DNA from: a virus | Virus record (IMG/VR): IMGVR_UViG_3300008448_000876 | Location: 1 to 20,190 of that record | Strand: one strand, 5' to 3' | DNA: 20,190 nt | Part shown: positions 1-16,183 of the stretch, piece after piece | Position numbering within the stretch: the stretch's first letter is position 1 | How the letters are laid out: every line of letters begins with the position of its first letter | Notes under the pieces: generated by a model | What the model was told of the DNA's origin: nothing | The model's input: the letters and a program-made list of their open reading frames with translations, nothing else | Database searches by the model: none | Translations under genes and position numbers: made by a program

Positions 1-1921
1 TATCTCGTCCTGCACTAACACCAGTCGCAGCTAAATTACTAATTCTTCCAATATCCATAGCAGTCTTAGCACTTTTACTTAATGTATCTGCAGCACCCAT
101 AGGATTTGTAAAACTACTAGCTATACTCCCAATTTGAGATATAGCATTACCTGCTTTATCCCAATCACTAGTATGCTTAGATGGGTCATAATTATTTTCA
201 TCTATCTTACCAATAGTATTAGCTAATTCACCTATTCCTCTTGTTGCCATAAGAAAAGGTTGTGCGCCAGGAAATAAGTTAGCTGCAGTGCTTAGTGATT
301 TACCTCCAAGGTTAGCTACATCATCAAACTTATCATTTGAATATTGGTCTTCATCTACAATATCTTGCATAGATTGGATACCTGTTAATCCTCCTATTGT
401 ACCTAAAGATGTATCAGCCATTCCATAACCTATATCTTTAATAGTAGAACCAAAGCCATACATACCTACAGGACCTCCATTAGCATATCCATGCATATAA
501 GAATTATTCTTACTTAACACAGCACCAAAGTTAGAAGAAGGACTATAGTCAGTAATAGGACCTCCATCAGCAAAAGTATAACTAGCTCCTGCATATCCTG
601 AGTTATCTCCTCTACCTGCACCATAACCTCCAAATAATTTAAATCTTGTATTACCTTTATCATCAATCCATAAAGGAGCTTGAACATCTACACCTAAGTA
701 AGGTCTTCCTTTTTGAGTGTCTATTGCAGTACTACCACTAGGTAATCCTACTTGTAAATTACCTGTTCTATTAGTATACCCAGCATTAATATTAAACATA
801 TTGTTTAACATTCCTAAACCAACACTAGCATCATAATAAGGATTTATTCTACCTTTACCAAATTTATCTAAACCTGCTTCTAAAGAAGCATTTAATCCTG
901 CAATTTCTACACCCCCTGCATCTAACCTTTTACGTCCTTGTCTTTGAGCTCCCCATGATGCAGTACCTAAAGGTATATGTGCATTTGCATTACCATGCAA
1001 AGCTCCAGTCATAAAAGTTTTATTTTCTGGACCTTCTGCATATCTATATCCTGTACCAGGAGTACCATGAGGTGTTGTATAATTAAAAGTTGTATGTAAA
1101 GAACCTCTATCTTGTTCACCTCTACCTAAAGTTAGTCCTGCTCCTAATGAAAGATTATTATCACTATATAAATCTTTAGTATAATCTAATCCATTTATAC
1201 GAGTACCTACTCCTATTTCTGGAGTAACACTTTGACCACTACTACTATAATTTCCTGGTAATTTATAATTAGTAGTAAATCCTGTACTGAATCCTGTTAT
1301 AGTATCATCTCCTGTATTTCTACTTCTACGTCCAAATCTACTATAAGGATTACCTGTAAAAGAACCTTCACCATACATAGGAGGAGTAGGCATACCCATA
1401 AGTTGTAATGCATCTACTGTACCTCCATCTTCAAATTCAAAACATCTTCCATCTACACATGATCCTGTAGGTTTACGTCTTTTAGGTCTTGCTTCTTTTT
1501 GATGAGGGTCAACAGTCTTTACATTTCGTGAATTATCTCTATCACCCCACCATACATAACCAGGAGGGCTCCACTTAGGCCTCTGTTTTGGAAATCTATC
1601 ATAAGGAGCACTTGTTGGAGTACCCATTTTTCTTTCTTCATGACAATCACAACTAGGAGGACATGGGCAATCATTTACCATACTTCCTGCATCATATTTA
1701 TTAATATAACTTTGAGCTTCATTAGGACTCATGTGAGCTTCAAGTCTACTACGAAGAATACCTTGAGGTAACTTACCTCCACTACCATACATTTCTGTAT
1801 CTTGGCCACCATGTACTTGAAAGAAAGAATCAGGAGTAGGATATTGTTTATGAAAAGCAGCTCTTCCTGCTGCTGTATCAGGGAAGCCAGCCTTAGCTAG
1901 CATTTGTTGTGCTTTATTCAT
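1..1921 (-). CDS. Large virion cargo-like protein with a beta-barrel-like region (cut by left edge)
   Basis: The frame is open from an ATG at 1921 to the left edge without a stop. The 640 visible residues are an N-terminal fragment and the stop lies outside the window. Residues 1-40 are helical and contain a YPTPDSFFQ segment, a type I associate with Bacteroidota phage virion proteins. A cysteine cluster follows (C85, C87, C91, C93, H94; also C155 and C160) beside a basic KRRKPTG stretch. Residues about 207-450 are Gly/Asn/Tyr-rich alternating strands ending GASYTF, resembling an outer-membrane beta-barrel. Residues about 490-640 are Gly/Ala/Ser-rich helices resembling ejected internal virion proteins. 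Short GG peptides recur at 44-49, 165-167, 182-187, 452-455 and 481-489, matching those of the upstream giant gene. The start lies 25 bases after that gene's stop. Function is inferred: virion cargo, perhaps membrane-active. I do not recognise the whole protein as a named family. Confidence 0.8.
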   Translation of the reverse strand, partial: MNKAQQMLAKAGFPDTAAGRAAFHKQYPTPDSFFQVHGGQDTEMYGSGGKLPQGILRSRLEAHMSPNEAQSYINKYDAGSMVNDCPCPPSCDCHEERKMGTPTSAPYDRFPKQRPKWSPPGYVWWGDRDNSRNVKTVDPHQKEARPKRRKPTGSCVDGRCFEFEDGGTVDALQLMGMPTPPMYGEGSFTGNPYSRFGRRSRNTGDDTITGFSTGFTTNYKLPGNYSSSGQSVTPEIGVGTRINGLDYTKDLYSDNNLSLGAGLTLGRGEQDRGSLHTTFNYTTPHGTPGTGYRYAEGPENKTFMTGALHGNANAHIPLGTASWGAQRQGRKRLDAGGVEIAGLNASLEAGLDKFGKGRINPYYDASVGLGMLNNMFNINAGYTNRTGNLQVGLPSGSTAIDTQKGRPYLGVDVQAPLWIDDKGNTRFKLFGGYGAGRGDNSGYAGASYTFADGGPITDYSPSSNFGAVLSKNNSYMHGYANGGPVGMYGFGSTIKDIGYGMADTSLGTIGGLTGIQSMQDIVDEDQYSNDKFDDVANLGGKSLSTAANLFPGAQPFLMATRGIGELANTIGKIDENNYDPSKHTSDWDKAGNAISQIGSIASSFTNPMGAADTLSKSAKTAMDIGRISNLAATGVSAGRD

Positions 1922-1946
1922 AGGATAAAATAAATTATAAAGTTAG

Positions 1947-4900
1947 TTAATTATAGCTATCTAGCCAAGTGTTTGAGTTATTATTTTTTACAGAGCCTCC
2001 ATCTTTATGAAAACCTCTTATTAGTTTATGTTTTACAGTTTGTGACGTAGTAGGTTTAAAGAATCGGTCTAAATTACCTTTATGAATTAAATAATCAAGT
2101 GTTATAGGTTCTGGTTTTTTTAATGCTTTTATAGCGTCAGAATGACTATAACCATAATTACTCATAATGTCTTGATAACCTTGTAATCTTGCAGACATTA
2201 AATCAGAATGCATTTCTCCAGGATAACCTTCCCATAAATAAGATTTATCATAAAGATCATTTAAAGTTTGTTGTAAATGAGATGGTGCATTTTTAATATC
2301 TTGATTTAAAGAAAAAATTCCTTTAGCATCTAAGTCTTCTCTAAATAATTTATATTCATTATTAGGTTCAAGCATAGCATTTTTAAATTCCATTCCTACT
2401 GGATTATCAGTATTAGCTGTAAGATATTTATAAGCAGATGGATTATAAGATGAAATAAGTCCCCAAGTATTATCAGCAGCTGTTGCAGTATGACCAAGTT
2501 CATGAGCATTTACATGTTGAATAGTTGATGGTTTATTAAAATAAAAACCGTGATTTCTAAAAGTTACAGGCATGTTAGGAGCTTTAGGTGAAACAAACCC
2601 ACTTGCTGTTGGCCTCATTTTAGTAATTTCATCTACAAAAAATTTTACTATAGGCTCATTAACATCTACATTTAAAGAGGCAGCTACATCTTTAGCTACG
2701 TTATTTTTCCTTACATCAGCTAATATAGGGTGAGCATCTAAAATTATTCTATCATTCCAAATAGGAGAAAGTGAAAACCCAGCTTTATTAAGAACTTTTT
2801 GTGCTGCATCATAAGCAGTTTTATCTAAAGTTGGATTTGGGTTAGTACTTCTATCAGGAAAATACCAATCTTTTACAAAGTTTGTAGCTGTATTAGCTGC
2901 GTCATTTTGCAAAGTTTTTACTTTATTTACTTGCTTTTGTGTTATAGGAAAAGTTTCAAAAAAAGGCCTACCTTCTTTTATATCATTAAATCCTTGATAA
3001 AATCCAGATGCATATTCTTTGCCTATTGGACCTAACTTAATTGGACCTACCTTAGATTTATTATATGCGTTTGCAGCAAGTTGCATTCCTTTATCTAAAC
3101 TATAATTTTTTAAACCACTTGTTCTTAATAAATTAGCTTCATTATTAAGAAAATTAACTCCTCTATATAATCCATTAATTGTTTCAGGTAAAGTAGCTAA
3201 TGCTGAATAAGTAGTTGGATCAAAAGCCATTACAGTTCCTTCACTTACATTAGGCATATTTTGGCCTGAGAAGAATCCAGGTAATTGTTTAAAGTTAGAG
3301 CCTGTACTAACACCTCTATTACTTAAATAATTTGCAGTGTTTCTTCCTATTATATTAATAGGAGAAAATATATCAGTACCACTTAACCAAGAATCATTAG
3401 CTTCTTGTAATTCTTTTGTAGTTAACCCTTTAATTCTATAATCAAAAGGTTTTCCTGGTAATAATGTATTACCTATTTGTTGTAATCCACTTAGCCCTCT
3501 ATCCCAAGCACTAGGTTGTAACATAGTACCATATTTAGAGTTTGCAATTATTTTTTTATACTCTGGAGATAATGTCTCTACCCAATCTGCTCTAGAACTT
3601 AAATCAATATTATTTTCTTTTGCATATTGTTCCATTGCATAATTATTCCGTAAATAATCATATTGGTTACCATATAAGTCTTCTACATCTTTAGGAAAAT
3701 TATCAAAGTCAACTCCTAATCCTTTTTGTAATCCTGAGTAACCATCTTTTAAATATTTTTGTTTTTGCTCTTTAATAAAATCTTCTCTAGATTGTTTTTC
3801 TTCAAATTCACTTTGCCATTTATTATATGGCATAACTTCTACACCTTTAAAATTAACTATAGGCATTCCTGTTGCAGGGTCTACTTGTAGTTTTATATTA
3901 TCATTAGGTCCTCTAACTCCTATTATATTATCTTCACCTCCTACAAAACTTCCATTACCCATCATAGTAGTATCAGGCGCATGTAACCTCATTGTATGAT
4001 AAGGTTGTACATCTTTATTATAATCATATGTACCTGCAGCAGGAGTTTTATAATCCATACCTGTAGGTATTACATCACCTATTCTATATCTACTAGTATT
4101 TAAACTTCTATCATTTCTAAAGTTCTGAGTAGAAGTTGGAGTAGGAGTACCTGCAGCATACAAAGGAGTATCTTGATTAGTCCATACAGTAGAACCTGCA
4201 TTGTACATAGGAATTCCTGTAGCATTTTTATAGCCTTCAGAAGATATGTAATCTGCATATTGATTAGGAACTTTTATAGCCTCATCTTTAGAATTCATTA
4301 CAGTAGGAAACATATAAGCTTGTCCATTATTATCTTCTCCCCATCCCATTTTATGACTCATTTTAGAACCAAATTCTTCAGGGTCAAATAAATTAAACAT
4401 AGGAGAATTAGGATTTTCTCCTACAGCATAAGCTCTTTGAACAAAATCTTTATCTCTGTTTCTATTCATTAATACATTAGCAATCATATTACCTTCTAAT
4501 GTATTTACACCTCCTCCTGGTCCATACATTACAGGCCCACCATCTTCTTTTTTATAAAGCTTTGCATCAACTTCTTTTCTAGCTTGTCTTCTAGAATAAC
4601 CTTTATACTTTCTTAAATAATCAATATAAGCAGGAGCTACTTTATCTAAATCTTTTTGGAAGTTTGGATTAACTAATACAGCTTGACTAGGAGCTACATC
4701 TGAATATGCAGAAGCTGCTTTATTAAATTCATCTTGAGTTATTAATTTATCTCCATTATAATAATTATATTTAGGAGTACCCATCTCATCTACTACTGCA
4801 TTTTCATCAATAGGAGTAAGACGTTTATCTGCAAACTTATTAAAGTTAGGATTTAATTCTTTTCTATATCCTACAGGTATACCTGAACTATGAGCAGCTG

Positions 4901-7900
4901 AGACTGCATCCATACCATACTGCTTTCCTAAACCTTCTATATACTCTTGTGCGTATTTTTGCTCAAAATATTTTCTACCACTTTCAGGGTTTACAGACAT
5001 GTTAGTAAAATAAGGATTTACAGCAGATATATCATCTAAATTAACACCAGGTGTTCTTGCTTCTGTTTTTCCATTATTTAAATTAAAAGCATTATAATCA
5101 TACCAAGCTCCTTCAAATAAAGGGTCTACCCTTTTATCCATAAACTTAGAAGTCTTTCTAAAAGCTTTTCTTCTATTATCTCCATACTTAATAAGGTTTT
5201 GCCCATATAAGTCTTTAAAGATATTAGCTTTTTGTTCTTCAGGATTGTTAGTTTGAGGAAAAGGAGTTTGATGTGTACCATCTTTTTTATACCCTAAATC
5301 ATATGTTTGAAATTTACCTCTATAAGGATTAATAATAAATCTAGTTAAATTAAAAGCATCATCTCCTTCCATCTCTATAGGACCATAAGGTTGACCTTCT
5401 TTATCCACCATATAGTTAAATCCTGTAGCATCGTCATACTTAACTCTTTTAAGAAGAGGCGATCCATTTAAAGTTTCAAAAGGATCTTGTGTTACAGGTG
5501 AATAACTACCTGATTTAGCATAAGTGTAAGCTCTCCAAGAAGGACTTTCTCCTAAACTTTTAGGAGCATCCATGTCATAGTATTGTCTATAAGGACTCTT
5601 ATTTCCCAATCCTAAAAATCCCCCACCTCCATACATTATAGGACCTCCTTGAGCAAACTTATTATTTTGTGCATCCCAAAGTTTACTATACTCTTCTTTT
5701 GAAATAGCTTTATCTCCATAGTAATAAACATTTCTAGGATTTCCTAATTCATCAACTACTGCTTCTTTAGTTCTTTTACCTTTTCCAAGATTAAACTTAG
5801 GATTAGCAGCCATTCTTAACATAGGTTGTGAAGAACCTTGAGGAGCTACTTGACGAATAGGTTGTTCATCATATTCTTCTGTAGGAAGAACTAAATCTTT
5901 AAATTCTGTTTTATTTCTTATTATAGGTTCTATAATTTCAATGCCATGTGGAGGAGGAGGTGGGGGTTGAGGAGGTTGAGGAGGTTGAGGGACATTATCA
6001 TTAAATATTACTTTTTGAACTGGTTTTTTAAATCTTGAATATGATCTCCATAAAAAAGGATTTGCATCAATAGGCCCAAGAGCTGTACCTGTAGGACTAG
6101 CAAATTTACTTTCAATAGGTAATATATTTGTACCAGGAAAAGGAACAAGTGTCATAGAACCTGGTTTAACTTTTAAAGGTGTCCCTTGTGCTCTACCTAT
6201 TCTAACTGCTGCGTTATAATCAGCAATTTGCATATTACCTACATTATAAGCCATTAAACTATCTTCATAAGCTTTTAATCTAGGGTCGTTAGGGTCTGTT
6301 ACATAGATAGGATTATTACCTCCACCTGTAGGCCCACCATCTTTATACATAGGTGCTTTATCAGTACCCATTTGATAATTAGTTAAAGTTCTATCAGGAT
6401 ATGCATCATAAAAAGAAGGAGTAGTAGGAGTAGGTAAAGAACTATCTTCTACCCAACTACCTGCATTGTACATATCTATCCAACCTCCAGCTTTATACAT
6501 ATTATCATTACAACATCCACCATTTTTAAAAGATTGTACATATCCTCCATTTTTTTGTTGAGGTGTTACTTCTAAAGGTTCAGGTGTAGTAAACATAGTA
6601 GGAATAACTTGTAGAACATTATTTGAATATTGGTCTACTAATTGTTTATATCCTGCATCTCCTTTTAGTATATCACCTTTATTTTGCATTGTAGCTTCAT
6701 CTCCTTTTAACCACCCACGCATATTATACAAGTATGGTATATATTCTAAATAATTATCTTTAGTAATATTTGAAGAATAAGGATTATTTTCTGTAGCAGT
6801 TTCTGCAGTAGTGTTAGCTCTTTTTCTAAGTAAAGGTAAACCTGCAGTTAAATATTCCATAGTAGCATCAGCTGCTGTCATAGGATTATACAAGTCATGT
6901 CCTTTTATAGTTTTTCTATAAGCTTCAGGTAATTGATTATATGTAAGTTGAAAAGGGCCAATACTTTTTTCTTCTTGGTTTATAATACCTAGTTTATCAG
7001 CCATCTTTGTAGCCCAAGGCCATTCAGGAGCAGGTACTTTTACACCCATTACTTCTTTTTCTTTACCTACATAGTCAGTACCAAATTTAGTCTCTGCTCC
7101 ATAAATACCAACCATGTTTTTTACTATAGCATCATATTCATCACTACTAATATTATGACTCCTCATATAATCATACTTATATTGAGGGTCACTATATTTA
7201 GTAAGCATACTTGTTAATCCTGAATTAGTAGCATCAATATAAGACCTAGCATTATAAGCTTGGTCTACTGTACCAGGATTAAGAGTTTGAATATTTACTG
7301 TAGGTACTAACTTATTTCCATACCTATCAGTACCTGAATCTTTTGTTTGTACATATTTACCATACTCATTACCTTGACCTTGGTCATTTAATTCAAAAGC
7401 AGTTTGTTTATAATCACCAGAACGAATATCTTCTTTAGGAGTAAAGTATTGAGGGTCTATTGCAAGTATTTGTTGTTTTATCGCATCTCTTTGTGTAACT
7501 AATTCATTGTAACTATTATCACTACCTTCTCTTCTTTTTAAAAGTTGAGTAGCATGAGGAGTTCTATCTCTACTTCCATATAAATTAGAATAAAGTTTAT
7601 TATCCTTTCCTAAAATATAAGCATCTTCTTTAACTATTGGACCACTACCATGAGTACCAACTACTGTTACAACTCTATCTCCATCTGCATTAGGTTCTCC
7701 TATACTGTATACAGTAAAAGCATGGTAAGGACCTGCTTTTTCATTTAACCCTCTTTTAAATTGAATAATATCTCCTGGTTCAATAAATCTCTCATCTTGT
7801 TCTAAATATCTACTAGCTTTAGGATTATTTTTAGCATACTTTGCAGCTAAAGCATTATCAATAAAAAAACTAGAACCTTCAGGATAAAATTTATCACCTG

Positions 7901-9359
7901 CTTGGTCAGCTAAATTACAAGCTGTTCCTATACAATTATTACCATTTCTTGCATACTCAGGAAAAACAGTATTAACATCAAACCCTTTTGCTATTAAATC
8001 ATCAGCAGTTTTACGCATGGTTTCTACATACGCATTTTTACTTGTATTGCCTTTATTTACTTGGTCTTGAATAGCTTGATATTGTGCAAGTAAAGCTTCT
8101 AATTCACTAGGAGGATTAGTAACTGTATCACCATCTGCATACATATCAATCCAACCACCATCTTTAGCAGATTGAATATTATCAAGCATTGGATTTTTAG
8201 CAGGTTCTTGTCTAGATATAGTATTAATCATATCTAAAATTTCTTCATCTGAATAAACACCTCTAAGTTGTTCTAATGCATCATAACTACTATCAGTTAA
8301 AGGTTTATAAGAGCCAAACATATCTATAGTAGCCTTTTCTGTAAAAGGATTATAAATACCTTGATTCTTCATTTGAAACCTTAAAGAATTTAATCTAGCT
8401 CTTGTTTCAGTAGGAGATTTAACATAAGTATTAAATGGAGTATCTTTAGCATCTTTACCATAAGATTCTATTAAATTTACATCAGATTGAGGCATTAATA
8501 TACCATTCCAATCAGAAGTATGACTAATTTCATGTACAGCTGTATCTGCTAAATTATCATCAGCTACATTATCTCTAAGGCGTATCATAGGACTAAACTT
8601 AGAAGAAGGAGTATACTTATCAAGTGCTCTATAAGGATTACTTACATAGTTAAAATAATTAGTATTATCTACATTTTCAGGACGTGTAGTTTCTCTAAAT
8701 TTATCTACAATAGGATTATCTATAAAATTATCAAAATCTTTTCTTGCTAAAAAAAACTTACTTTGTCCTGATATATTAGAAACTTCATCTTTTCCAAGAA
8801 AATCATCATTACCTCCATTTAAATAAGTATTAAAATCTTGATTAGATAAAGTTTGAAAATCTACATTATTTATAGCACTTACTCTAGCATCTCTCATTTG
8901 TTCCCAATAAGGCTTAGTAAAAGAAGTTTTAGAATAATTAGGAATAATTTTTTCACCTCGTATATTACTTAACGACCTTTCTCCAAAATTACTATCTAAA
9001 TATCCTGCACGTCTAGCTCCAAGTTTATTACCACTTGGATTATCTAATGAAACAGATTTTTGTAACATACTTTGACCCATTGGAGAGTTAGTCCAATCTC
9101 GCATATAATTTGCATAAGGATTTCCAAAAGTAGCTGGAGGGTTTTCTCCTCCTACTATATCTCCATCAGCATGTTTATTAATCTTTCTTTCTTGACGTAA
9201 CATCTCAGCAGTAGGCTTGCGGCCAGAACCTCTATTAGCTCTAATATTATCCCATAATCCTCTAGGAGAATAAGAACCATCTGCTCTTTTAATTAGACCT
9301 CCTTGTTTATACATAGAAGCATCCTCTTCTGCATTATACATATCTAACCAATTACTCAT
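1947..9359 (-). CDS. Giant 2470-aa multidomain virion protein: two zincin-like domains, a cysteine hydrolase and a lytic transglycosylase
   Basis: The layout reads as follows. A zincin-like metallopeptidase lies at about 230-395, with H276-E277-x-x-H280 and E318 in SPTETRAR as likely third zinc ligand. An NlpC/P60- or CHAP-like hydrolase lies at about 412-650, with C476 in GNNCIGTAC and H546 in PYHAFTV. A lytic-transglycosylase-like domain lies at about 735-905, with E756 in GAETKFG and SIGPFQL ending at 805. A proline-rich hinge follows at about 1123-1138, then a module duplicated at 1186-1231 and 1503-1550, and unrecognised modules to about 2240. A second zincin lies at about 2265-2440, with H2286-E-L-G-H2290 and E2382 or H2384 as candidate third ligand. 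Short GG peptides separate modules. No signal peptide is visible. The start is one base after the stabilisation-protein stop (TAATATG). Position downstream of that gene is typical of crAss-like cargo proteins. I infer envelope and peptidoglycan opening at infection. No RNA-polymerase DxDxD motif was found here. Confidence 0.88.
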   Translation of the reverse strand: MSNWLDMYNAEEDASMYKQGGLIKRADGSYSPRGLWDNIRANRGSGRKPTAEMLRQERKINKHADGDIVGGENPPATFGNPYANYMRDWTNSPMGQSMLQKSVSLDNPSGNKLGARRAGYLDSNFGERSLSNIRGEKIIPNYSKTSFTKPYWEQMRDARVSAINNVDFQTLSNQDFNTYLNGGNDDFLGKDEVSNISGQSKFFLARKDFDNFIDNPIVDKFRETTRPENVDNTNYFNYVSNPYRALDKYTPSSKFSPMIRLRDNVADDNLADTAVHEISHTSDWNGILMPQSDVNLIESYGKDAKDTPFNTYVKSPTETRARLNSLRFQMKNQGIYNPFTEKATIDMFGSYKPLTDSSYDALEQLRGVYSDEEILDMINTISRQEPAKNPMLDNIQSAKDGGWIDMYADGDTVTNPPSELEALLAQYQAIQDQVNKGNTSKNAYVETMRKTADDLIAKGFDVNTVFPEYARNGNNCIGTACNLADQAGDKFYPEGSSFFIDNALAAKYAKNNPKASRYLEQDERFIEPGDIIQFKRGLNEKAGPYHAFTVYSIGEPNADGDRVVTVVGTHGSGPIVKEDAYILGKDNKLYSNLYGSRDRTPHATQLLKRREGSDNSYNELVTQRDAIKQQILAIDPQYFTPKEDIRSGDYKQTAFELNDQGQGNEYGKYVQTKDSGTDRYGNKLVPTVNIQTLNPGTVDQAYNARSYIDATNSGLTSMLTKYSDPQYKYDYMRSHNISSDEYDAIVKNMVGIYGAETKFGTDYVGKEKEVMGVKVPAPEWPWATKMADKLGIINQEEKSIGPFQLTYNQLPEAYRKTIKGHDLYNPMTAADATMEYLTAGLPLLRKRANTTAETATENNPYSSNITKDNYLEYIPYLYNMRGWLKGDEATMQNKGDILKGDAGYKQLVDQYSNNVLQVIPTMFTTPEPLEVTPQQKNGGYVQSFKNGGCCNDNMYKAGGWIDMYNAGSWVEDSSLPTPTTPSFYDAYPDRTLTNYQMGTDKAPMYKDGGPTGGGNNPIYVTDPNDPRLKAYEDSLMAYNVGNMQIADYNAAVRIGRAQGTPLKVKPGSMTLVPFPGTNILPIESKFASPTGTALGPIDANPFLWRSYSRFKKPVQKVIFNDNVPQPPQPPQPPPPPPHGIEIIEPIIRNKTEFKDLVLPTEEYDEQPIRQVAPQGSSQPMLRMAANPKFNLGKGKRTKEAVVDELGNPRNVYYYGDKAISKEEYSKLWDAQNNKFAQGGPIMYGGGGFLGLGNKSPYRQYYDMDAPKSLGESPSWRAYTYAKSGSYSPVTQDPFETLNGSPLLKRVKYDDATGFNYMVDKEGQPYGPIEMEGDDAFNLTRFIINPYRGKFQTYDLGYKKDGTHQTPFPQTNNPEEQKANIFKDLYGQNLIKYGDNRRKAFRKTSKFMDKRVDPLFEGAWYDYNAFNLNNGKTEARTPGVNLDDISAVNPYFTNMSVNPESGRKYFEQKYAQEYIEGLGKQYGMDAVSAAHSSGIPVGYRKELNPNFNKFADKRLTPIDENAVVDEMGTPKYNYYNGDKLITQDEFNKAASAYSDVAPSQAVLVNPNFQKDLDKVAPAYIDYLRKYKGYSRRQARKEVDAKLYKKEDGGPVMYGPGGGVNTLEGNMIANVLMNRNRDKDFVQRAYAVGENPNSPMFNLFDPEEFGSKMSHKMGWGEDNNGQAYMFPTVMNSKDEAIKVPNQYADYISSEGYKNATGIPMYNAGSTVWTNQDTPLYAAGTPTPTSTQNFRNDRSLNTSRYRIGDVIPTGMDYKTPAAGTYDYNKDVQPYHTMRLHAPDTTMMGNGSFVGGEDNIIGVRGPNDNIKLQVDPATGMPIVNFKGVEVMPYNKWQSEFEEKQSREDFIKEQKQKYLKDGYSGLQKGLGVDFDNFPKDVEDLYGNQYDYLRNNYAMEQYAKENNIDLSSRADWVETLSPEYKKIIANSKYGTMLQPSAWDRGLSGLQQIGNTLLPGKPFDYRIKGLTTKELQEANDSWLSGTDIFSPINIIGRNTANYLSNRGVSTGSNFKQLPGFFSGQNMPNVSEGTVMAFDPTTYSALATLPETINGLYRGVNFLNNEANLLRTSGLKNYSLDKGMQLAANAYNKSKVGPIKLGPIGKEYASGFYQGFNDIKEGRPFFETFPITQKQVNKVKTLQNDAANTATNFVKDWYFPDRSTNPNPTLDKTAYDAAQKVLNKAGFSLSPIWNDRIILDAHPILADVRKNNVAKDVAASLNVDVNEPIVKFFVDEITKMRPTASGFVSPKAPNMPVTFRNHGFYFNKPSTIQHVNAHELGHTATAADNTWGLISSYNPSAYKYLTANTDNPVGMEFKNAMLEPNNEYKLFREDLDAKGIFSLNQDIKNAPSHLQQTLNDLYDKSYLWEGYPGEMHSDLMSARLQGYQDIMSNYGYSHSDAIKALKKPEPITLDYLIHKGNLDRFFKPTTSQTVKHKLIRGFHKDGGSVKNNNSNTWLDSYN
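4509..4553 (-). repeat. Inter-domain peptide, GGPVMYG type (residues 1603-1617)
   Basis: KKEDGGPVMYGPGGG follows duplicated module copy 2 and precedes a module containing DKDFVQRAY and SHKMGWGEDN with a YMFPTV strand. Confidence 0.7.
4710..4853 (-). repeat. Duplicated module, copy 2 (residues 1503-1550 of the giant protein)
   Basis: The segment runs NPNFN, then NAVVDEMGTPKYNYYNGDKL, then TQDEFNKAAS, and is the partner of copy 1 at 5667-5804. A further NPNF start occurs shortly after this copy without the rest of the module. Confidence 0.75.
5619..5657 (-). repeat. Inter-domain peptide, GGPIMYG type (residues 1235-1247)
   Basis: FAQGGPIMYGGGG directly follows duplicated module copy 1. It is nearly the same as the peptide after copy 2 and resembles NGGPVGMYG in the neighbouring large protein. 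Confidence 0.7.
5667..5804 (-). repeat. Duplicated module, copy 1 (residues 1186-1231 of the giant protein)
   Basis: The segment runs NPKFN, then EAVVDELGNPRNVYYYGDKA, then SKEEYSKLWDAQ. It matches copy 2 at 4710-4853 in order and spacing: NPxFN, AVVDE(L/M)G, a YY-GDK strand and an acidic helix. Each copy is followed by a GGP(I/V)MYG peptide. The similarity is at protein level; the DNA has diverged. Confidence 0.75.
5965..5991 (-). repeat. 9-bp tandem repeat encoding a Pro-Gln-Pro hinge
   Basis: Three tandem copies of GGTTGAGGA (plus-strand sense, last copy with one end mismatch) lie next to a run of GGA/GGG triplets at 5951-5966. Read on the minus strand they encode PQPPQPPQPPPPPP, a stiff proline-rich hinge in the middle of the 2470-aa protein (about residues 1123-1138). 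Confidence 0.85.
6318..6350 (-). repeat. Inter-domain peptide, MYKDGGP type (residues 1004-1014)
   Basis: MYKDGGPTGGG lies just before the unrecognised module that begins NPIYVTDPNDPRLKAYEDSL. It combines the MY and DGGP elements seen in the other linkers. Confidence 0.65.
6453..6500 (-). repeat. Inter-domain peptide, WIDMY type (residues 954-969)
   Basis: MYKAGGWIDMYNAGSW follows the lytic-transglycosylase domain. It is preceded by two further GG peptides (QKNGGY and FKNGGCC) within about 20 residues. Confidence 0.7.
8127..8165 (-). repeat. Inter-domain peptide, WIDMY type (residues 399-411)
   Basis: KDGGWIDMYADGD separates the first zincin-like domain from the cysteine hydrolase. Related peptides occur at the N terminus (NWLDMYN, residues 3-9), at 957-969 and at the extreme C terminus (NTWLDSYN). 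Confidence 0.7.
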
Positions 9360-9360
9360 A

Positions 9361-12300
9361 TTATCTAGAATTTAAAGCGTACGCAGCTTTAGCTGAATGT
9401 ACTACTAGTTTATTATTAGGTGTATTATTATAAGTTAGTTCTACCATGAACCATACATCTTTTAACCTTCTAGTTAATCGTGGTCTTACAGCAGAAAGAT
9501 TTAAATTATCAAATATATTTTGATTTACGTCTAACACTCTATCAGAAGGTACACGTAAATTCCAAATAGTTTTATGTCTTCTTGCATAATTATCTCTACT
9601 ACTTAAATCTGCTTTATTAGGAATCAAAGTAATCCAATCAGTATTTTGATAATTATTAAATATACGAATAGACTCAAAGAAATCTGTATAATCTATTTGA
9701 GCTAAAGCATCGTAATAGTAAGAATCATTAGGAGCTTGTTGAGTATTATGTTTATACCCTTCTGCTATAATCTCTAAATTATTTAATACTTTTTCTGTAG
9801 TAGTAGAAGTGTTTAAAACAAAACTTAAAGTAGAATAATCAGGTACACGTGCTTGATAAAAATTACCATACCTTCCATAGTTATGGATATACAATATTTC
9901 ATTGTATAAATTATTTGGGTCAGGAGAAAAGATATTTAACTTATCATTAAGATATACTTTAGGATAATGAGTGTATTCACCTATATACCCATCTAATAAA
10001 TCATTATAAACTAATGTTAAATAAAAGTCAGAAGTCTTATCTAAAAAAGTCATATAGAATTCATTATGCCTAAAATCATAAGTACAATGAATACCTTCAT
10101 AGATATAAGGATTATCTTTAACCTGAATGTTACCTGAGATTCTATTATACAAGAAAGCATTTAATCCTTTAATATCAGATAAAGGTTCTAAACCTTCTCC
10201 TTTATATCTATACATTTTTCTAGCAAGAGTATCAAACCATATCATACTATAGTCAGATACAGACATACCAAACTGATGTTTAGTACCTGTCTTAGTAGAA
10301 ATATAATCATACCTTTCTAATATACCTGAACTACCTAATACTAAATTAGCAGCAGTACTATCAGCTTCTTGAATTAACTTTTGTTCGTTAATTTGTAATT
10401 GACCAAACGCTCTATCTTGAAAAAAGAATAATTTATCTTTAAATACAAGTAAGTTATTTAAAGGCCCATAAGCTGACTCTACATCTAAATATGCACCAGG
10501 TTTAAAGTTACTCCAAGATTCTACTAACTCTCCATCTTGTTTAGGTTCAGACTTCCATACTCTACAATCAAATCTAAGAGATACATCTCCTAACGCAGGT
10601 TTAGCAAAGTATGTATAAGCAGTTTTATTTGTATGATTGTATACAGGGTCTACATTAAAATATTCTGCTGCTCCTATTCTAAACGCATTAGACCAAGCAG
10701 AAGAAGTTAAACTCCCAGGACTTTCTGTAATCCTACTTCTATTAGGTACACCTGTATAAATTAAATTAGTAGTATTATTATAATTTCTTCTATAATCAAC
10801 TGCTACATAAGTTTCACAAGGAAAGTATGCCCAATGCGTTAATAATTGTGCGGAACTACCATCATTTAAAAATTCTTGGCCTTCAGCTCTATCAAAAAAT
10901 TGTACTACATGATCTACTATAGTTACTGCAGTATCTCCTCCAAATATTCTAGTAGATACAATTCCACGAGAAGATATATCAATTAAATTATTACAAGGAA
11001 TGTATTCACTTAAAGCTCTAGCAAAATAACCATGTCCACCAAAAGGACCTCCTTGAATAGACCTTGTATAATTACTTAAATAGTAAGAAGTTAAAGTTCC
11101 ATAAACAAATTGCTCACTTAAAAACGCATCTCCTCCAAATGCAAGATTATTCCAATTAGAAGCAGGACCTTCAGTTAATTCTACAAACACAGAATTATTA
11201 CCATAAGAATATGCACTAGCAGAAGTTCCTAATCCTCCACCAGGAGTGCCTGATAAATCTTTAGGAGTGCAGTTATGAACAGTTCGTATACCTCCTGTAT
11301 AATCAGCAGTTATACCTGTATCATATCTTCTATTGTCCCCTCCAGCTGTTATAGAAGTAGCTTTTTGAATAGGATAAGGGTTTTGACTTAATACATTTTT
11401 TATAGGAGCTGGGTAAGCACTAGTTTCATGTAAATCATAAACTTTATGTCTTCTTCCTTGAGCAGTTATTGTATTACTTGATTCAAGAGCATAAGTACCA
11501 TTTAATTGTACAGGTGAATTGTTATATTCATCTGCTAATTGCTTAGAACTAACACTATTGTATATTCCTAAAACATCTAACGCATCAGTTCCTCCATACC
11601 CTACAAATTTATCAAACAAAAAGTCAGGACTATGAAAAGTCCAACAATCAAACCAAATATTATTTTCAGTTGCACCATAATGATCATACTTATTAAAAGT
11701 ACTTCCTTCACACAAAAAAACTTCTTCAGGAGCAGGTGATACATTATATGCTTTTAAAGTAGGTAAAAATAATCCTTGTCCTAATATATGTTTATCTTCT
11801 TGTTTTTTAGGAACACGAACAATAGAAGCTTTTTTATATTGTGGTGGTACATTACTAAAATCAATAGTAAATCTAATTCCTAAAGGTTTACCATATAAAT
11901 AATTTTCAGTTGCAGAACCAACAGTTTTATCTATTTTAACTATACTAGTATGTAAGTTAGTAGATTCAATTGTACTACGGTTATTATTACTTACAGGATA
12001 TACTGCACCATCTGTAGTGTCAGGCATAAACATGTGAGGCATCCTAATATCCCCAATCCAATTCACATAAGTAGGATTATCCAGCTCATCAAAAAAGACA
12101 ATACCAAATCTTTCCATCTCATCTCTTCTATAACCTACGAATATATCATATTTATAAGGAGAGTTGTTGTTAGACAATGAGTTACCTCTACTAGCATAGT
12201 ATCTATCTTCAGACCAAAATGTAGTTCCTGTATTAGTACCAGCTGTTAAGTGAGGAGCAAATACAGGAGTCCCTTGATCATTTTTATTATCTAGTAAAGT

Positions 12301-14868
12301 AGTTTCTGTAACAAACTCATAAGATACATTAGGACCTGCTCCACCTAATACATTACTATTAGGTTGGTATAAATAATTAGTATCAAGAGTAGGAGCTTGT
12401 GCATTATAATCTTGAACACAATCATGTTCTTCAGGAATTAAATAAGGTGTTGTTACAGCTACTCCATTTTCTTGAGTAATTTGATAACCTAAATTTGCAT
12501 CTACTGTATAAGATTTATTAGAAGTATTAATAACATCTCTAATTATAGTAGTAGAACTGTTTATAGGAAATCTATAGGCTCTAGCATCCCAATCTACTAT
12601 TTGAGTTCCTAATGCTACATTACCTAAAAATAAAGTTTGTTTTTTAGCAACTAATGTTTTAGCACGTATAATAGAAGAAGTAAAAGCAGTAAATTCATCT
12701 AATGTAATAGGTACTTTAGTTTCATTACCTGATATAAGTAAATCTACTGAACCATTTGCAGGAATAGAAATTTCTGGTATTACATTAATTTCTGGAGTAC
12801 TTGTATTATCTCTATAATACAAAGTAGCAAATTCTATTGTATCAAAATTAGTATCTACATTTTGTACTTCTACTCTAATTGATTTACCTGCTACAGTAGG
12901 TTTAGGGTCATTAGTATTTGTATTATCTAATAAAGGTTTTGTAGGATAATAAGTATTAGGTACAGTAACATTTTCTGAAGCATCTATAATAGGAATTAAC
13001 TGAGAAGTTCTACCAAATCTTGTTTCTGAACCATTTATATTTTTTAATCTGTATGCTACTTGATATACTCCCATGTATAATCCACCACCATCTATAACTT
13101 CTGTTACTTGTGGTAAGTCCATAGATAAAGAAGGAAGTAATCTTAATTCATCTACTGTTAAACTAGCTACATTAGGGTCAGCTACATTTATTTGTCTAGG
13201 TACATTATAGTTATCTGTCCAATAAATTTTTTGAATAAATTCATTTTCATATCTACCTTCTATCATTCCTGGATTAGCAATAGGACGATATTTAGTAAGA
13301 TTTAAAACAGGATTATGATAAACTAAAGAAATATTATAGTTTGCACTATTTGCATAATCTCCTGCTCTATTATAATAAAGTTTCCATATTTGACCATCTG
13401 TTATAGGAAGATTAGGACCTCCCCATGTTGTAGGGTCATCTGGATCTACTGCACCTGTAGTAGTAAATAAATATAAATTATCATTTTGAGCATCTCTTAA
13501 ATTAGTCCATCCTATTAAAGAAGGATTAGTAGCTCCTGGTATATTATTTATAGTAACTAAACTATAATTCATTACAGGACCTGATACTTTTAAGTAATCT
13601 AAATTAAAATCTATATCATAAGAATATGGACTACTTGCTGGAATAGAAGCTTCTATAAATACAAAAATCTGTGGTTTAATAGTAGCTCCATTATTAAAAG
13701 GAGTGTCAGATAAATTTACAGTAAACTGTACAGCTCCAAGATTATTTAAATTTTGAGATAATACTTGACTATAAACTCTAGCACATCTTTGAGTACCTGT
13801 TAATTGATACCCTCCTGTAATATTAGGAAATTCATAAGTAAGAGAAGGAGAAGGATCATTCCAACCATTACCCATGTACATGTAAACTTTTAATGTAAAA
13901 GTTACATTAGCATTATTTAAAGCTCCTACATAATAACTTAAATCAAAGTTATAAGGACCTGCTGGATAATCTTGTATATTGTATAAATTATTTTGAAGAG
14001 TATCATAAGAGATTAAAGCAGCTGAAGCATCTCTAGCAGAAATTAAACTTGTGTAAGTATCACGGTATCTAATTCTAGAAATACCTTTAGCTATTACTGC
14101 TCCTGTGCTGCTTATTATACCAGTTCCTAAATTTACATTATATGTAGGAGTTCCAGTTGCACCACCAATCCATCTATTGTCTAATTGCCATTGATTAGGT
14201 CCTGCTGCACCTGTATAAAAAATATTACCTACTGGTAATAAATTCATGTTTATATTATAATCAGGTAATGTAGGATCACTAGATATTAAATTCTCACAAT
14301 CATAATCTACTGGACTATATCCTGTTATAGTATAATTATTTACTACATTTCCTGAATAAAATAATCCTGTTGTTATAGTGTCACAATTAGGAACACTTAA
14401 TGTAACAGTACCTGTATAAGTAGTACTATAAGTAGGACTAAATACTCCACTAATACTATAAGTAGAAGATGCTGTAATAAGAGCATTTATAAATATAGAA
14501 TTAGTATTTACAAAAGAAATTACATCATTTAAAAATCTATCTATAGAAATGTATGTAAAAGTAAAAAGAACTAATGTTCCATTTAAATAAAATTCTAAAC
14601 TATAAGATTGATTTATAGTTAATGTATTTCCTATTTTATTTAAATCAAATATTAATGAAGTAGTACATGGTACATTAGGAATACTTATTATAGAAGTATT
14701 ACCTTTAATATTAGATCTAACAGCTAATGTACCTCCATCATCTGTAGTTACTCTAAAATTTTTAGATTCATAAACTACATTCTCAGGGACTTTACCAAAA
14801 GCTATATCCTTATTTAATAAACCTCCTAAATCTTTTATTCCAGAAGGTCCTTGAGTTTCTTCAGCCAT
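9361..14868 (-). CDS. Tail stabilisation (muzzle) protein, P22 gp10-like, crAss-like type, with a large N-terminal insertion
   Basis: At 1835 aa this is the structural protein expected at the distal end of a crAss-like short tail. Diagnostic stretches are the N-terminal ENVVYESKNFRVTTDDGG (residues 29-46) with LAVRSNIKGN, the IGWTNLRDA block from 452, the IYWTDNYNVPRQINVA block, and the LLVFKDKLFFFQDRAFG to LERYDYIS block (about 1473-1525). As I recall, the last is the most conserved part of the P22 gp10/crAss stabilisation family. Residues about 58-450 are a Thr/Asn/Ser-rich beta-structured stretch where relatives I remember have only a short connection, so it looks like an inserted decoration domain. 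It starts five bases after the 266-aa gene and ends one base before the giant cargo gene, implying one late transcript. The role is structural and the exact homologue number is not assigned. Confidence 0.87.
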   Translation of the reverse strand: MAEETQGPSGIKDLGGLLNKDIAFGKVPENVVYESKNFRVTTDDGGTLAVRSNIKGNTSIISIPNVPCTTSLIFDLNKIGNTLTINQSYSLEFYLNGTLVLFTFTYISIDRFLNDVISFVNTNSIFINALITASSTYSISGVFSPTYSTTYTGTVTLSVPNCDTITTGLFYSGNVVNNYTITGYSPVDYDCENLISSDPTLPDYNINMNLLPVGNIFYTGAAGPNQWQLDNRWIGGATGTPTYNVNLGTGIISSTGAVIAKGISRIRYRDTYTSLISARDASAALISYDTLQNNLYNIQDYPAGPYNFDLSYYVGALNNANVTFTLKVYMYMGNGWNDPSPSLTYEFPNITGGYQLTGTQRCARVYSQVLSQNLNNLGAVQFTVNLSDTPFNNGATIKPQIFVFIEASIPASSPYSYDIDFNLDYLKVSGPVMNYSLVTINNIPGATNPSLIGWTNLRDAQNDNLYLFTTTGAVDPDDPTTWGGPNLPITDGQIWKLYYNRAGDYANSANYNISLVYHNPVLNLTKYRPIANPGMIEGRYENEFIQKIYWTDNYNVPRQINVADPNVASLTVDELRLLPSLSMDLPQVTEVIDGGGLYMGVYQVAYRLKNINGSETRFGRTSQLIPIIDASENVTVPNTYYPTKPLLDNTNTNDPKPTVAGKSIRVEVQNVDTNFDTIEFATLYYRDNTSTPEINVIPEISIPANGSVDLLISGNETKVPITLDEFTAFTSSIIRAKTLVAKKQTLFLGNVALGTQIVDWDARAYRFPINSSTTIIRDVINTSNKSYTVDANLGYQITQENGVAVTTPYLIPEEHDCVQDYNAQAPTLDTNYLYQPNSNVLGGAGPNVSYEFVTETTLLDNKNDQGTPVFAPHLTAGTNTGTTFWSEDRYYASRGNSLSNNNSPYKYDIFVGYRRDEMERFGIVFFDELDNPTYVNWIGDIRMPHMFMPDTTDGAVYPVSNNNRSTIESTNLHTSIVKIDKTVGSATENYLYGKPLGIRFTIDFSNVPPQYKKASIVRVPKKQEDKHILGQGLFLPTLKAYNVSPAPEEVFLCEGSTFNKYDHYGATENNIWFDCWTFHSPDFLFDKFVGYGGTDALDVLGIYNSVSSKQLADEYNNSPVQLNGTYALESSNTITAQGRRHKVYDLHETSAYPAPIKNVLSQNPYPIQKATSITAGGDNRRYDTGITADYTGGIRTVHNCTPKDLSGTPGGGLGTSASAYSYGNNSVFVELTEGPASNWNNLAFGGDAFLSEQFVYGTLTSYYLSNYTRSIQGGPFGGHGYFARALSEYIPCNNLIDISSRGIVSTRIFGGDTAVTIVDHVVQFFDRAEGQEFLNDGSSAQLLTHWAYFPCETYVAVDYRRNYNNTTNLIYTGVPNRSRITESPGSLTSSAWSNAFRIGAAEYFNVDPVYNHTNKTAYTYFAKPALGDVSLRFDCRVWKSEPKQDGELVESWSNFKPGAYLDVESAYGPLNNLLVFKDKLFFFQDRAFGQLQINEQKLIQEADSTAANLVLGSSGILERYDYISTKTGTKHQFGMSVSDYSMIWFDTLARKMYRYKGEGLEPLSDIKGLNAFLYNRISGNIQVKDNPYIYEGIHCTYDFRHNEFYMTFLDKTSDFYLTLVYNDLLDGYIGEYTHYPKVYLNDKLNIFSPDPNNLYNEILYIHNYGRYGNFYQARVPDYSTLSFVLNTSTTTEKVLNNLEIIAEGYKHNTQQAPNDSYYYDALAQIDYTDFFESIRIFNNYQNTDWITLIPNKADLSSRDNYARRHKTIWNLRVPSDRVLDVNQNIFDNLNLSAVRPRLTRRLKDVWFMVELTYNNTPNNKLVVHSAKAAYALNSR

Positions 14869-14873
14869 AATTT

Positions 14874-15674
14874 TTAATATCTACCTCTAAATGCTCTTGT
14901 ATTAATATTACTAAATGCACTTGCAAAGTCTTCTGTACGTACAACCATTTTAGTAAGTTGTCTACGTAGACTTTCTGCTTGACTAAGATCAGGCATTTTA
15001 ATATGTGAACTTGCAGATGCAACATTCCATCTCCATTCCTCTTCAGACTTCATATAAACTTTATCAGTTAACATATCTTGTCTCCAAAGAATATAATCCA
15101 TCTTCATTTGAAGATAAGACGCACATGCTCTTTTATATTTTACATCATCAGGTACAAGAGGAAACCCTTCTTCATCTAATGGAAAAGCATAGTAAGCCAT
15201 ACATACTTTACCTTCTTTAATATTAAACGTAATGTAATTATTATTAATAGTAAAGGTAGGAGGGTTAGCAGTTATCCTTGTATTTAAAGGTAAAGCTTGT
15301 GGAGAAAACATATTACCAAAGTTATCATAAAAATTCTCCATAGGCCTAGCCGAAGAATCTATATTACAACATGAGCCATCTAATAAATGATGAAATGTAT
15401 TTTGAGAAGGTATAGCTATTACACCATCTACTGATATAGCAATTAACTTATGAAAATCTGCAGGAAGTTCAATTCTATAATCTTGTAAATTATAAGACTC
15501 ATCTCCATTTATACCAATAACTTTTGGCATATATTGTAATGGTGCTCCAATAAGTTCCATACATTCATATATCCAATAAGCACCATCACCTAAGTTGAAT
15601 AAATCGTTGTATGCAGTATTTCTAAAAAAATTATTTATAACTTCCTTAGAAGATGTGTAATTAGCTATTAACAT
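14874..15674 (-). CDS. Neck/tail structural protein, crAss-like (tail tubular or ring type)
   Basis: The protein has 266 aa and no signal peptide or membrane segment. It carries stretches I associate with a crAss-like virion protein just upstream of the stabilisation gene: NLQDYRIELPADFHKL (about 63-78), then KEGKVCMAYYAFPLDEEGF and LVPDDVKYKRACASYLQMK, and a helical C-terminal third with EEEWRWNVASASSHIKMP. The likely role is a ring or adaptor between portal and tail tip, by analogy with P22 gp4-like or tail-tubular proteins. The exact counterpart in solved crAss-like virions is not assigned. Its ATG overlaps the previous stop (TAATG), suggesting coupled translation. A 71-codon frame on the other strand (15005-15220) is a shadow. 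Confidence 0.75.
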   Translation of the reverse strand: MLIANYTSSKEVINNFFRNTAYNDLFNLGDGAYWIYECMELIGAPLQYMPKVIGINGDESYNLQDYRIELPADFHKLIAISVDGVIAIPSQNTFHHLLDGSCCNIDSSARPMENFYDNFGNMFSPQALPLNTRITANPPTFTINNNYITFNIKEGKVCMAYYAFPLDEEGFPLVPDDVKYKRACASYLQMKMDYILWRQDMLTDKVYMKSEEEWRWNVASASSHIKMPDLSQAESLRRQLTKMVVRTEDFASAFSNINTRAFRGRY

Positions 15675-16183
15675 TATAAGAAATAATCTATGTTAGTTGT
15701 TTGAATAAGTTTAGCAAGTTCTCTTTTCCTCTCACGAAGAGCTTCAAACTTGTAATATGATTTACCACTAGGACCTTTTTTACAAAGCCAATAGAACTTG
15801 TATCTACAATTATCTCTATCTTCATTTAAATGCTTTATAATTTTACCAGTCTTTTGGAAATGGCCCCAGTCAGTTTTTAAATTTTTACATTCATGTAGAA
15901 GACCTATATCCATCTGCTTCTTTTGAATTCTAATTTCACCTAAGTTGTAAGGTACAGCAAAGGTTTTAGATTCATGTAAAACTTGATGCATAATTTCTTC
16001 TAAACATTTAGTAGTAACTTTTTTATACTCTTCCCAACTTAATGATAAGTCTTTAGGATTAGATGTACTAAACTTACTACCGTGTGATTCAAAGTCAAAC
16101 TTTTTTAAATAAGAAGTGTAGGCTGATTTTAAGTTTTTATCAGTCTTATATTTACCTACACCTCTTTTTGAAAGTCTACTCAT
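15674..16183 (-). CDS. Conserved crAss-like structural-block protein (169 aa), exact role unknown
   Basis: This is a basic protein rich in Lys and aromatics. Its most distinctive stretches are VPYNLGEIRIQKKQ (about 78-91), LKTDWGHF (about 102-109) and the segment from HLNEDRDNCRYKFYWLCKK to FEALRERKRELAK near the C terminus. I recall this pattern (short N-terminal helices, a 'LGEIRI' strand, an 'F/WYW' strand, then an RxxKRxLA helix) in a small uncharacterised protein of the crAss-like tail block. Candidate roles are tail hub/ring component or assembly factor; nothing enzymatic is visible. It overlaps genes on both sides by one base (TAATG). Its start is the only one in the window with a strong Shine-Dalgarno sequence. 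Confidence 0.72.
   Translation of the reverse strand: MSRLSKRGVGKYKTDKNLKSAYTSYLKKFDFESHGSKFSTSNPKDLSLSWEEYKKVTTKCLEEIMHQVLHESKTFAVPYNLGEIRIQKKQMDIGLLHECKNLKTDWGHFQKTGKIIKHLNEDRDNCRYKFYWLCKKGPSGKSYYKFEALRERKRELAKLIQTTNIDYFL

What the first reader, a model, noticed from the sequence alone, without database searches (positions are those of the whole stretch)
1..9359. Recurring GG/MY peptides punctuate two neighbouring giant proteins: polyprotein processing sites or packaging tags
Short peptides of two kinds, GGW(I/L)DMY and (D/Q/N)GGP(I/V)xMYG, recur at nearly every module boundary of the 2470-aa protein and around the barrel region of the next protein. Some residues between them are not conserved, but the peptides are. 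Repetition at boundaries across two genes suggests a shared function: cleavage by a phage protease, docking to a scaffold or portal, or a recombination-friendly linker that lets cargo modules be shuffled. I have seen similar peptides in other Bacteroidota phages, without a known function.
Basis: partly seen in the sequence, partly recalled or inferred. Interest (0 to 1): 0.85.

Follow-up and report, generated by a model that had tools for sequence, protein, structure and literature searches.

The report
Joint peptides in phage ejection proteins
Two giant proteins of an uncultured crassvirus-type phage are strings of exchangeable small domains joined by a repeated short peptide; the peptide marks where domains are swapped between genes and phages, probably acts as a hinge or contact point in protein that is stored in the virion and injected into the host, and does not look like a cleavage site.

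Summary
The peptides are real. The window is a crassvirus fragment (rings, muzzle); proteins A (2470 aa) and B (640+ aa) occupy the cargo position behind the muzzle. In A/B proteins of the window and six related contigs the peptides exceed shuffles 17- to 87-fold (37 vs 2.2; 19 vs 0.6; 20 vs 0.23) and are absent from muzzles and other cargo genes. Homology breakpoints between relatives fall within 5 aa of a peptide 53 times of 195 (18 expected, maximum 35). One bead module ('GLWDNIRA', once per record) and a Gly-rich helical module each sit in A in some phages and in B in others; all four combinations occur. Within a genome, peptide copies differ at 45% of synonymous codons, as random choice would give, so the amino-acid sequence is maintained, not freshly copied DNA. 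The solved C1 ejection protein of crAss001 (gp45) has one of the same beads and GG joints. I read the peptides as hinge/contact joints of uncleaved, shuffled ejection proteins. Cleavage is disfavoured: no S78/Clp protease found, joints present without any in-cis zincin motif, peptide kept at the extreme C-terminus. A general packaging tag is not supported: C2- and RNAP-type cargo lacks it. Docking inside the virion stays open. AlphaFold models failed (pLDDT 31).

The parts
1947..9359 (-). Protein A, 2470 aa: cassette-string cargo protein directly downstream of the muzzle
   Evidence: ORF; homologues in L008, L003, L004, L005, L133, L139, L143 at the same place
2..1921 (-). Protein B, first 640 aa: C1/gp45-type ejection protein, N-terminal bead string; C-terminal core lies beyond the window
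   Evidence: ORF open at the edge; L008_B has the same start and runs on into the conserved core
9361..14868 (-). Crassvirus muzzle protein
   Evidence: PF25731, E 2.6e-145
14874..15674 (-). Tail ring protein 1
   Evidence: PF24228, E 1.6e-50
16183..16878 (-). Tail ring protein 2
   Evidence: PF25702, E 1.3e-36
9333..9356 (-). Joint variant at the N-terminus of A, SNWLDMYN (residues 2-9)
   Evidence: same start in L005 (MENWLDMY) and L133 (MKNWLDKF)
9297..9314 (-). Joint MYKQGG (A16-21)
9177..9299 (-). GLWDNIRA bead (A21-61), a basic module found once per relative, in A or in B, and as stand-alone 50-aa genes
8160..9176 (-). Region A62-400 with HEISH zincin-like motif at A276
   Evidence: motif only; no Pfam hit
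8139..8159 (-). Joint GGWIDMY (A401-407)
   Evidence: identical 11-residue joint in L133 behind a different upstream module
7260..8138 (-). Region A408-700, fold not assigned; conserved in L133
   Evidence: 55% identity A308-758 / L133
6552..7262 (-). Region A700-936, possible muramidase-like segment (by eye only)
   Evidence: sequence reading; no Pfam hit
6468..6521 (-). Double joint GGCCNDNMYKAGGWIDMY (A947-964)
6336..6464 (-). Conserved block A966-1008 (GSWVEDSS..TNYQMGTDKAPMYKDGG), once per complete A homologue
   Evidence: 79-84% identity over four phages
5649..6323 (-). Cassette A1013-1237 (YVTDPNDP..VVDELG); two related copies in L008_A
5619..5648 (-). Joint GGPIMYGGGG (A1238-1247)
4542..5618 (-). 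Cassette A1248-1606, no homologue in the relatives found
4512..4541 (-). Joint GGPVMYGPGG (A1607-1616)
4191..4217 (-). Joint GIPMYNAGS (A1715-1723), crossover point between different upstream cassettes
   Evidence: window GIPMY|NAGS, L008 GGPVMY|NAGS, L004 KAPMY|AAGS
3957..4211 (-). Conserved block A1717-1801 (MYNAGSTVWT..HAPDTT)
   Evidence: 88% identity to L004, 78% to L008
2001..3956 (-). C-terminal cassette A1802-2453 with HELGH zincin-like motif at A2286, no homologue in relatives
1950..2000 (-). C-terminal peptide GGSVKNNNSNTWLDSYN (A2454-2470)
   Evidence: L008_A ends NNNSNTWLDQYN; L004, L139 and L143 A proteins end GGWLDNL
1811..1921 (-). N-terminal module of B (residues 1-37)
   Evidence: shared start with L008_B; similar module in L004, L139, L143 B proteins
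1775..1810 (-). Joint GGQDTEMYGSGG (B38-49), site where L008_B carries an extra KRGTF bead plus joint
1685..1774 (-). RSRLEAHMSP bead (B50-79)
   Evidence: profile E 2.5e-22; 66% identity to L099
1358..1426 (-). Joint block GGTVDALQLMGMPTPPMYGEGS (B166-188)
   Evidence: profile E 1.2e-14; in all five B homologues
566..1357 (-). Region B189-452, proposed beta-barrel by composition; not confirmed
   Evidence: sequence reading; AF2 pLDDT about 25 here
545..565 (-). Joint variant GGPITDY (B453-459)
446..478 (-). Joint GGPVGMYGFGS (B482-492)
2..445 (-). Gly-rich helical module B493-640; found in A in L004 and L143, in B in window, L008, L139

Best explanation
A and B are ejection (cargo) proteins of a crassvirus, B being of the C1/gp45 type. 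Each is a string of small exchangeable modules: basic beads of 25-75 aa, peptidase- or muramidase-like inserts, a Gly-rich helical module, and in B a C-terminal core. The GG/MY peptides are the joints between modules. Shown here: the joints are far above chance, lie where homology between relatives breaks, occur only in A/B-type genes of these contigs, and are kept as peptides although their codons are saturated; modules move between A and B and between phages. Inferred: a joint is a short flexible Gly-Gly hinge carrying a conserved aromatic contact (W-D-x-Y or V-D-M-Y) that lets the uncleaved chain be stored in head and tail and threaded through the portal and tail barrel, with modules gained or lost at the joints without disturbing neighbours.
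For: Crassvirus ring and muzzle genes directly upstream. Motif counts 37 vs 2.2, 19 vs 0.6, 20 vs 0.23. Breakpoints within 5 aa of a joint 53/195 vs 18.1, max 35 of 2000 shifts; with joints masked 43/153 vs 14.5, max 30. All 16 DNA matches of MY..GG in five relatives' records, 180 kb, lie in A or B (placed with the ORF coordinates). Clean cassette insertion: window B 'DTEMYGSGG|KLPQ' vs L008_B 'DDMYKSGG|GIHIK..KHEDGGPVMYADGG|KLPE'. GLWDNIRA bead once per record, in A or B; Gly-rich module in A or B; all four combinations. Within-genome joint copies differ at 111/248 synonymous codons. For some pairs shared blocks have far fewer synonymous changes than the muzzle (L004-L139: 0/30 and 15/102 vs 349/919, p about 1e-6; L005-L008: 4/59 vs 233/882, p 3e-4), i.e. 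recent exchange. crAss001 gp45, the solved C1 protein with residues 214-245 in the tail barrel and 425-552 on the portal (PMC10172136), has the KRGTF bead at 373-424 between GG joints; its portal-bound domain matches mosaic proteins L103, L128 and L093, and L103/L128 share the C-terminal core with B-type relatives. Gut phage cr85_1 has bead - 'GGWIDEEF' - muramidase-like insert - portal domain in one C1 protein. 65/124 bead boundaries have GG/GS within 10 aa vs 21.9 at random.
Against: No structure or experiment shows what the joints do. The window's B is cut before the C1 core, so its C1 identity rests on L008_B and gene order. The direct profile link from B-type proteins to gp45 is weak (4.2 bits, E 0.0016 in a two-sequence test) and goes mainly through L103/L128. 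A pure hinge does not need W, M and Y, nor a copy at the extreme C-terminus, so contact or docking may be the main role. Both AF2 models failed (pLDDT about 31), so disorder of the joints is not shown. Motifs were defined after the fact and the 12 proteins are related. Several shared blocks are no younger than the muzzle (W-L008 8/65 vs 249/1369, p 0.32).
Confidence: 0.6

Rival explanations
1. Docking motif: the aromatic peptide binds a site in the portal, the inner ring surface or the muzzle, so many weak contacts load and align the chain; the modules between are passengers.
For: Peptide kept despite codon saturation; W-L-D within the last seven residues of all five complete A proteins, behind unrelated C-terminal domains in the window and L008; crAss001 gp45 has a joint-like 'SAYGGPLEFGSG' at 206-217, overlapping the start of its ring-bound segment 214-245; the crAss001 map holds an unassigned 14-residue peptide at the muzzle.
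Against: Absent from C2- and RNAP-type cargo, which is also loaded; MY joints are rare in gut crassvirus C1 proteins; no binding partner tested.
Confidence: 0.22
2. Polyprotein processing sites: a phage, in-cis or host protease cuts at the GG joints to free the modules.
For: GG is a common recognition element (own knowledge); zincin-like HExxH motifs at A276 and A2286; self-processing by metallopeptidase domains has been proposed for polyvalent phage proteins (PMC5512222).
Against: No Peptidase_S78 or Clp-type protease in four relatives' contigs and six complete crassviruses (the S77 search had a silent control); L004, L139 and L143 A proteins have joints but no HExxH; motif at the extreme C-terminus, where a cut frees nothing; gp45 is discussed as one chain spanning tail and head; virion RNAP of N4, which has such a domain, is packaged unprocessed.
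Confidence: 0.1
3. Recombination relics: the joints are short repeats through which modules recombine and have no role in the protein.
For: Breakpoints sit at joints; some shared blocks are recent exchanges.
Against: Copies within a genome are saturated at synonymous codons, so there is little DNA identity left to recombine through, yet the amino acids are kept.
Confidence: 0.08

Closest known systems
crAss001 cargo protein C1, gp45 (solved in part; PMC10172136)
   Same: Gene order muzzle - cargo; KRGTF bead with GG joints; portal-bound domain and C-terminal core found in mosaic relatives; parts in tail and head of the virion
   Different: One 842-aa protein with few beads and aromatic-GG joints (SAYGGP, NAFGGW) rather than MY/WDMY joints; beads and joints are not mentioned in the passages read; here two genes, up to 2470 aa, many cassettes
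Polyvalent proteins of phages and conjugative elements (Iyer et al. 2017, PMC5512222)
   Same: Very large multidomain proteins next to virion genes, variable domain order, zincin-like motifs, proposed to be injected
   Different: None of the 24,736 Pfam models matched A or B; short stand-alone beads and a repeated joint peptide are not described in the passages read; their proposed processing by in-cis metallopeptidase does not fit all homologues
Cellulophaga phage phi14:2 gp81/gp80 (Crassvirales, Akihdevirus; virion proteins by MS/MS as annotated)
   Same: Genes behind the muzzle; gp81 has a portal-type module and two HExxH segments introduced by GG..VDPP linkers
   Different: No MY/WDMY joints; separate shorter genes
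T4-type internal proteins with capsid-targeting sequence (own knowledge)
   Same: Short peptide attached to internal virion cargo
   Different: There the tag is N-terminal and cut off by the prohead protease; here it is repeated, internal and also C-terminal, and no such protease was found

Membership tests
Crassvirus C1 (gp45) cargo protein, for B | Gene lies in the cargo block behind muzzle and ring genes | tested here: met
Crassvirus C1 (gp45) cargo protein, for B | C-terminal helical core shared with C1 | tested here: inconclusive
   window B is cut at the edge; met in L008, L004, L139, L143 B proteins and L103, L128; direct match to gp45 weak
Crassvirus C1 (gp45) cargo protein, for B | Portal-wing-bound domain (gp45 425-552) | tested here: inconclusive
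   found in L103, L128, L093, DAC15, cr85_1 and phi14:2 gp81, not by this profile in the close relatives; window B ends before it
Crassvirus C1 (gp45) cargo protein, for B | Packaged in the virion and ejected | not testable with these tools
   uncultured phage; true of gp45 (PMC10172136)
Protease-processed virion polyprotein | Virion-maturation protease encoded | tested here: not met
   no PF04586 or PF00574 in ten relatives; relatives' contigs are fragments, six crassviruses are complete
Protease-processed virion polyprotein | In-cis metallopeptidase in every homologue that has the sites | tested here: not met
   HExxH absent from L004, L139, L143 A proteins
Protease-processed virion polyprotein | Mature termini at the peptides | not testable with these tools
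   needs mass spectrometry
General cargo-packaging tag | Present on all packaged cargo proteins of the phage | tested here: not met
   zero in C2- and RNAP-type genes; 16 of 16 DNA matches in A/B genes
Polyvalent proteins (Iyer et al. 2017) | Variable multidomain architecture next to late virion genes | tested here: met
Polyvalent proteins (Iyer et al. 2017) | Contains catalogued domains (MPTase, LPD and others) | tested here: inconclusive
   no Pfam hit; two HExxH motifs only

The most novel reading that the evidence does not exclude
The joint peptide is a reusable docking code of phage interiors: any module flanked by GG-[WVP]-x-D/P-M-Y-x-x-GG is held in the portal-tail channel and injected, so phages exchange payload modules by swapping joint-bounded cassettes. 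The same joint also occurs in other phage proteins with tape-measure-like segments.
Probability: 0.2. Interest if true: 0.85.

Novelty: new variant of a known kind. Interest (0 to 1): 0.62.

Why it matters
C1 is the one crassvirus cargo protein seen in both head and tail, and how it is held and ejected is open. Showing that it belongs to a family of joint-and-bead strings gives defined, testable units (beads, joints, inserts), suggests how these phages gain and lose injected enzymes, gives a profile for finding C1 where sequence search fails (the authors report none in the epsilon group), and points to joint-bounded cassettes as natural payload slots.

Tried and rejected
AlphaFold of A75-960 and of B (two-sequence alignments): mean pLDDT 31, unusable, so no fold search was run. 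Pfam, PHROGs, PDB-by-sequence and INPHARED tblastn for A and B: nothing useful. PDB search with the B-type alignment gave only a weak FtsZ match (E 0.0045), judged spurious. Pure DNA-repeat recombination was rejected by codon saturation. Calling the Gly-rich module transmembrane was dropped: 19-residue hydropathy reaches 1.4 in L139_B only among those modules. Beta-barrel in B: neither shown nor excluded. S77 protease search: control silent, no conclusion. The paper library had nothing under the bead sequences as search words and nothing relevant on domain shuffling of ejection proteins.

Full report
What is there. The window is a fragment of an uncultured phage; only these 20,190 bases are held. 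On the minus strand run a phage lysozyme, a metallophosphoesterase-like protein, tail ring protein 2, an unnamed protein, tail ring protein 1, the crassvirus muzzle, then A (2470 aa) and B (640+ aa, cut by the edge). It is therefore a crassvirus, and A and B lie where crAss001 has its cargo genes gp45-gp46 and phi14:2 its MS-detected virion proteins gp81-gp79. Neither A nor B matches Pfam or the INPHARED phages, and A matches nothing in the PDB by sequence.

The peptides. Counts over 12 A/B-type proteins from the window and six related contigs exceed shuffles by 17- to 87-fold for the three tight patterns (37 vs 2.2, 19 vs 0.6, 20 vs 0.23) and 7-fold for the loosest (36 vs 5.1). They are absent from the muzzles, apart from the loosest pattern, and from the C2- and RNAP-type cargo genes. 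In five relatives' records (180 kb) all 16 DNA matches to MY..GG lie in A or B (placed). The W form belongs to A and the V-D/P-M-Y form mainly to B.

Boundaries and shuffling. Relatives were found through the muzzle, A, B and two conserved blocks. Their A and B proteins are only patchily homologous. Ends of homologous stretches lie within 5 aa of a joint 53 times of 195 (18.1 expected, maximum 35 in 2000 circular shifts); with the joints masked, 43 of 153 (14.5, maximum 30). Some cases are exact. In B the window reads DTEMYGSGG|KLPQ where L008 reads DDMYKSGG|GIHIK...KHEDGGPVMYADGG|KLPE: a bead with its own joint inserted at a joint. The block starting [NA]AGSTVWT follows GIPMY in the window, GGPVMY in L008 and KAPMY in L004. 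About 710 aa present between two blocks of the window's A are absent from L004. The GLWDNIRA bead occurs once per record, in A in the window, L008, L004 and L005 and in B in L139 and L143; the Gly-rich helical module behind a joint is in B in the window, L008 and L139 and in A in L004 and L143. All four combinations of the two occur in five phages, so A and B behave as one cargo set split over two genes.

Peptide or DNA? Copies of the joint within one genome use different codons for the same residue in 111 of 248 comparisons, about what random codon choice gives. The repetition is thus old and kept at the protein level. Whole blocks, however, have moved recently between some phages: L004 and L139 share the last 33 codons of A with no synonymous change (0/30) and another block at 15/102, against 349/919 in the muzzle (p about 1e-6); L005 and L008 4/59 against 233/882 (p 3e-4). 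Other blocks are no younger than the muzzle.

Link to known proteins. crAss001 gp45 (C1) is the only such cargo with resolved parts: residues 214-245 inside the tail rings and 425-552 on the portal (PMC10172136). Its sequence has a KRGTF bead at 373-424 between GG joints, and its portal-bound domain, as an iterated profile, matches mosaic proteins L103, L128 and L093, DAC15, cr85_1 and phi14:2 gp81. L103 and L128 also share a C-terminal core with the B-type proteins of the window's relatives. DAC15 has two tandem beads; cr85_1 from the human gut has bead, GGWIDEEF, a muramidase-like insert and then the portal domain (insert identified by eye). The direct profile match of B-type proteins to gp45 is weak, so the link is mainly transitive. 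Small beads (GLWDNIRA, KRGTF, YFGD, WIQK) are strongly basic (mean net charge +7 to +12), and 65 of 124 bead boundaries have GG/GS within 10 aa (21.9 expected). An independent DNA search for GG-x-VDMY-xx-GG in IMG/VR returned 16 stretches; two are L139 and L143 themselves, and most of the others lie in proteins with a tape-measure-like PGEFVI segment and NPGF-like beads (six ORFs match that profile at E below 0.05), two in proteins with a helical segment that resembles the core by eye, and one (L168) looks unrelated.

How it works. Best reading: A and B are uncleaved ejection proteins made of exchangeable modules; the joint is a Gly-Gly hinge with a conserved aromatic contact that allows storage and threading through portal and barrel and tolerates gain and loss of modules. 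Location, restriction to A/B, protein-level retention and shuffling are shown; hinge and threading are inferred. Docking is the strongest rival, because W-L-D is kept at the very C-terminus of all five complete A proteins and a joint-like stretch of gp45 overlaps the start of its ring-bound segment. Cleavage is disfavoured, though the protease families searched are few, and the four environmental records are fragments.

Limits. Motifs were defined after inspection; the proteins are related; AF2 failed for both jobs; enzyme names for A are motif-level only; the barrel in B is unconfirmed. Novelty: no paper found describes the joints or beads, while the protein class (C1 cargo) and the general idea of injected multidomain phage proteins (polyvalent proteins) are known.

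Noticed in passing
window 9177-9299 (A21-61); L013, L015, L043 and others: The GLWDNIRA bead is very common in viral contigs: the scan stopped at 120 stretches; 68 of 121 copies are in open frames under 80 aa, i.e. stand-alone genes of about 50 aa, and 19 are in frames of 300 aa or more. 'GLWDNIRAKRARGE' variants match PHROGs of unknown function.
   Followed up: partly
L128 (1601-aa ORF), L081 (1391-aa ORF), window B189-452 (566-1357): Barrel-like beta-rich repeats in three cargo-type proteins, two copies in L128: possible outer-membrane-type barrels carried by ejection proteins (seen by eye).
   Followed up: no
L156-L158, L160-L163, L165-L167, L170: Another phage group has G/M/Y joints and an NPGF-like bead behind a tape-measure-like 'LTPGEFVI' segment.
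   Followed up: partly
L055, L077, L093: Other mosaic proteins look as if they carry YkuD-like, T4-lysozyme-like and kinase-like segments between beads (by eye).
   Followed up: no
L146, L147, L148, L150: C1-position genes of several gut crassviruses have in-frame stop codons under table 11, consistent with the stop-codon reassignment known in some of these phages.
   Followed up: no
window 15674-16183: Unnamed protein between the two ring genes with only a weak HNH_3 hit (E 0.034) and PHROG 12177 (E 1.4e-10).
   Followed up: no
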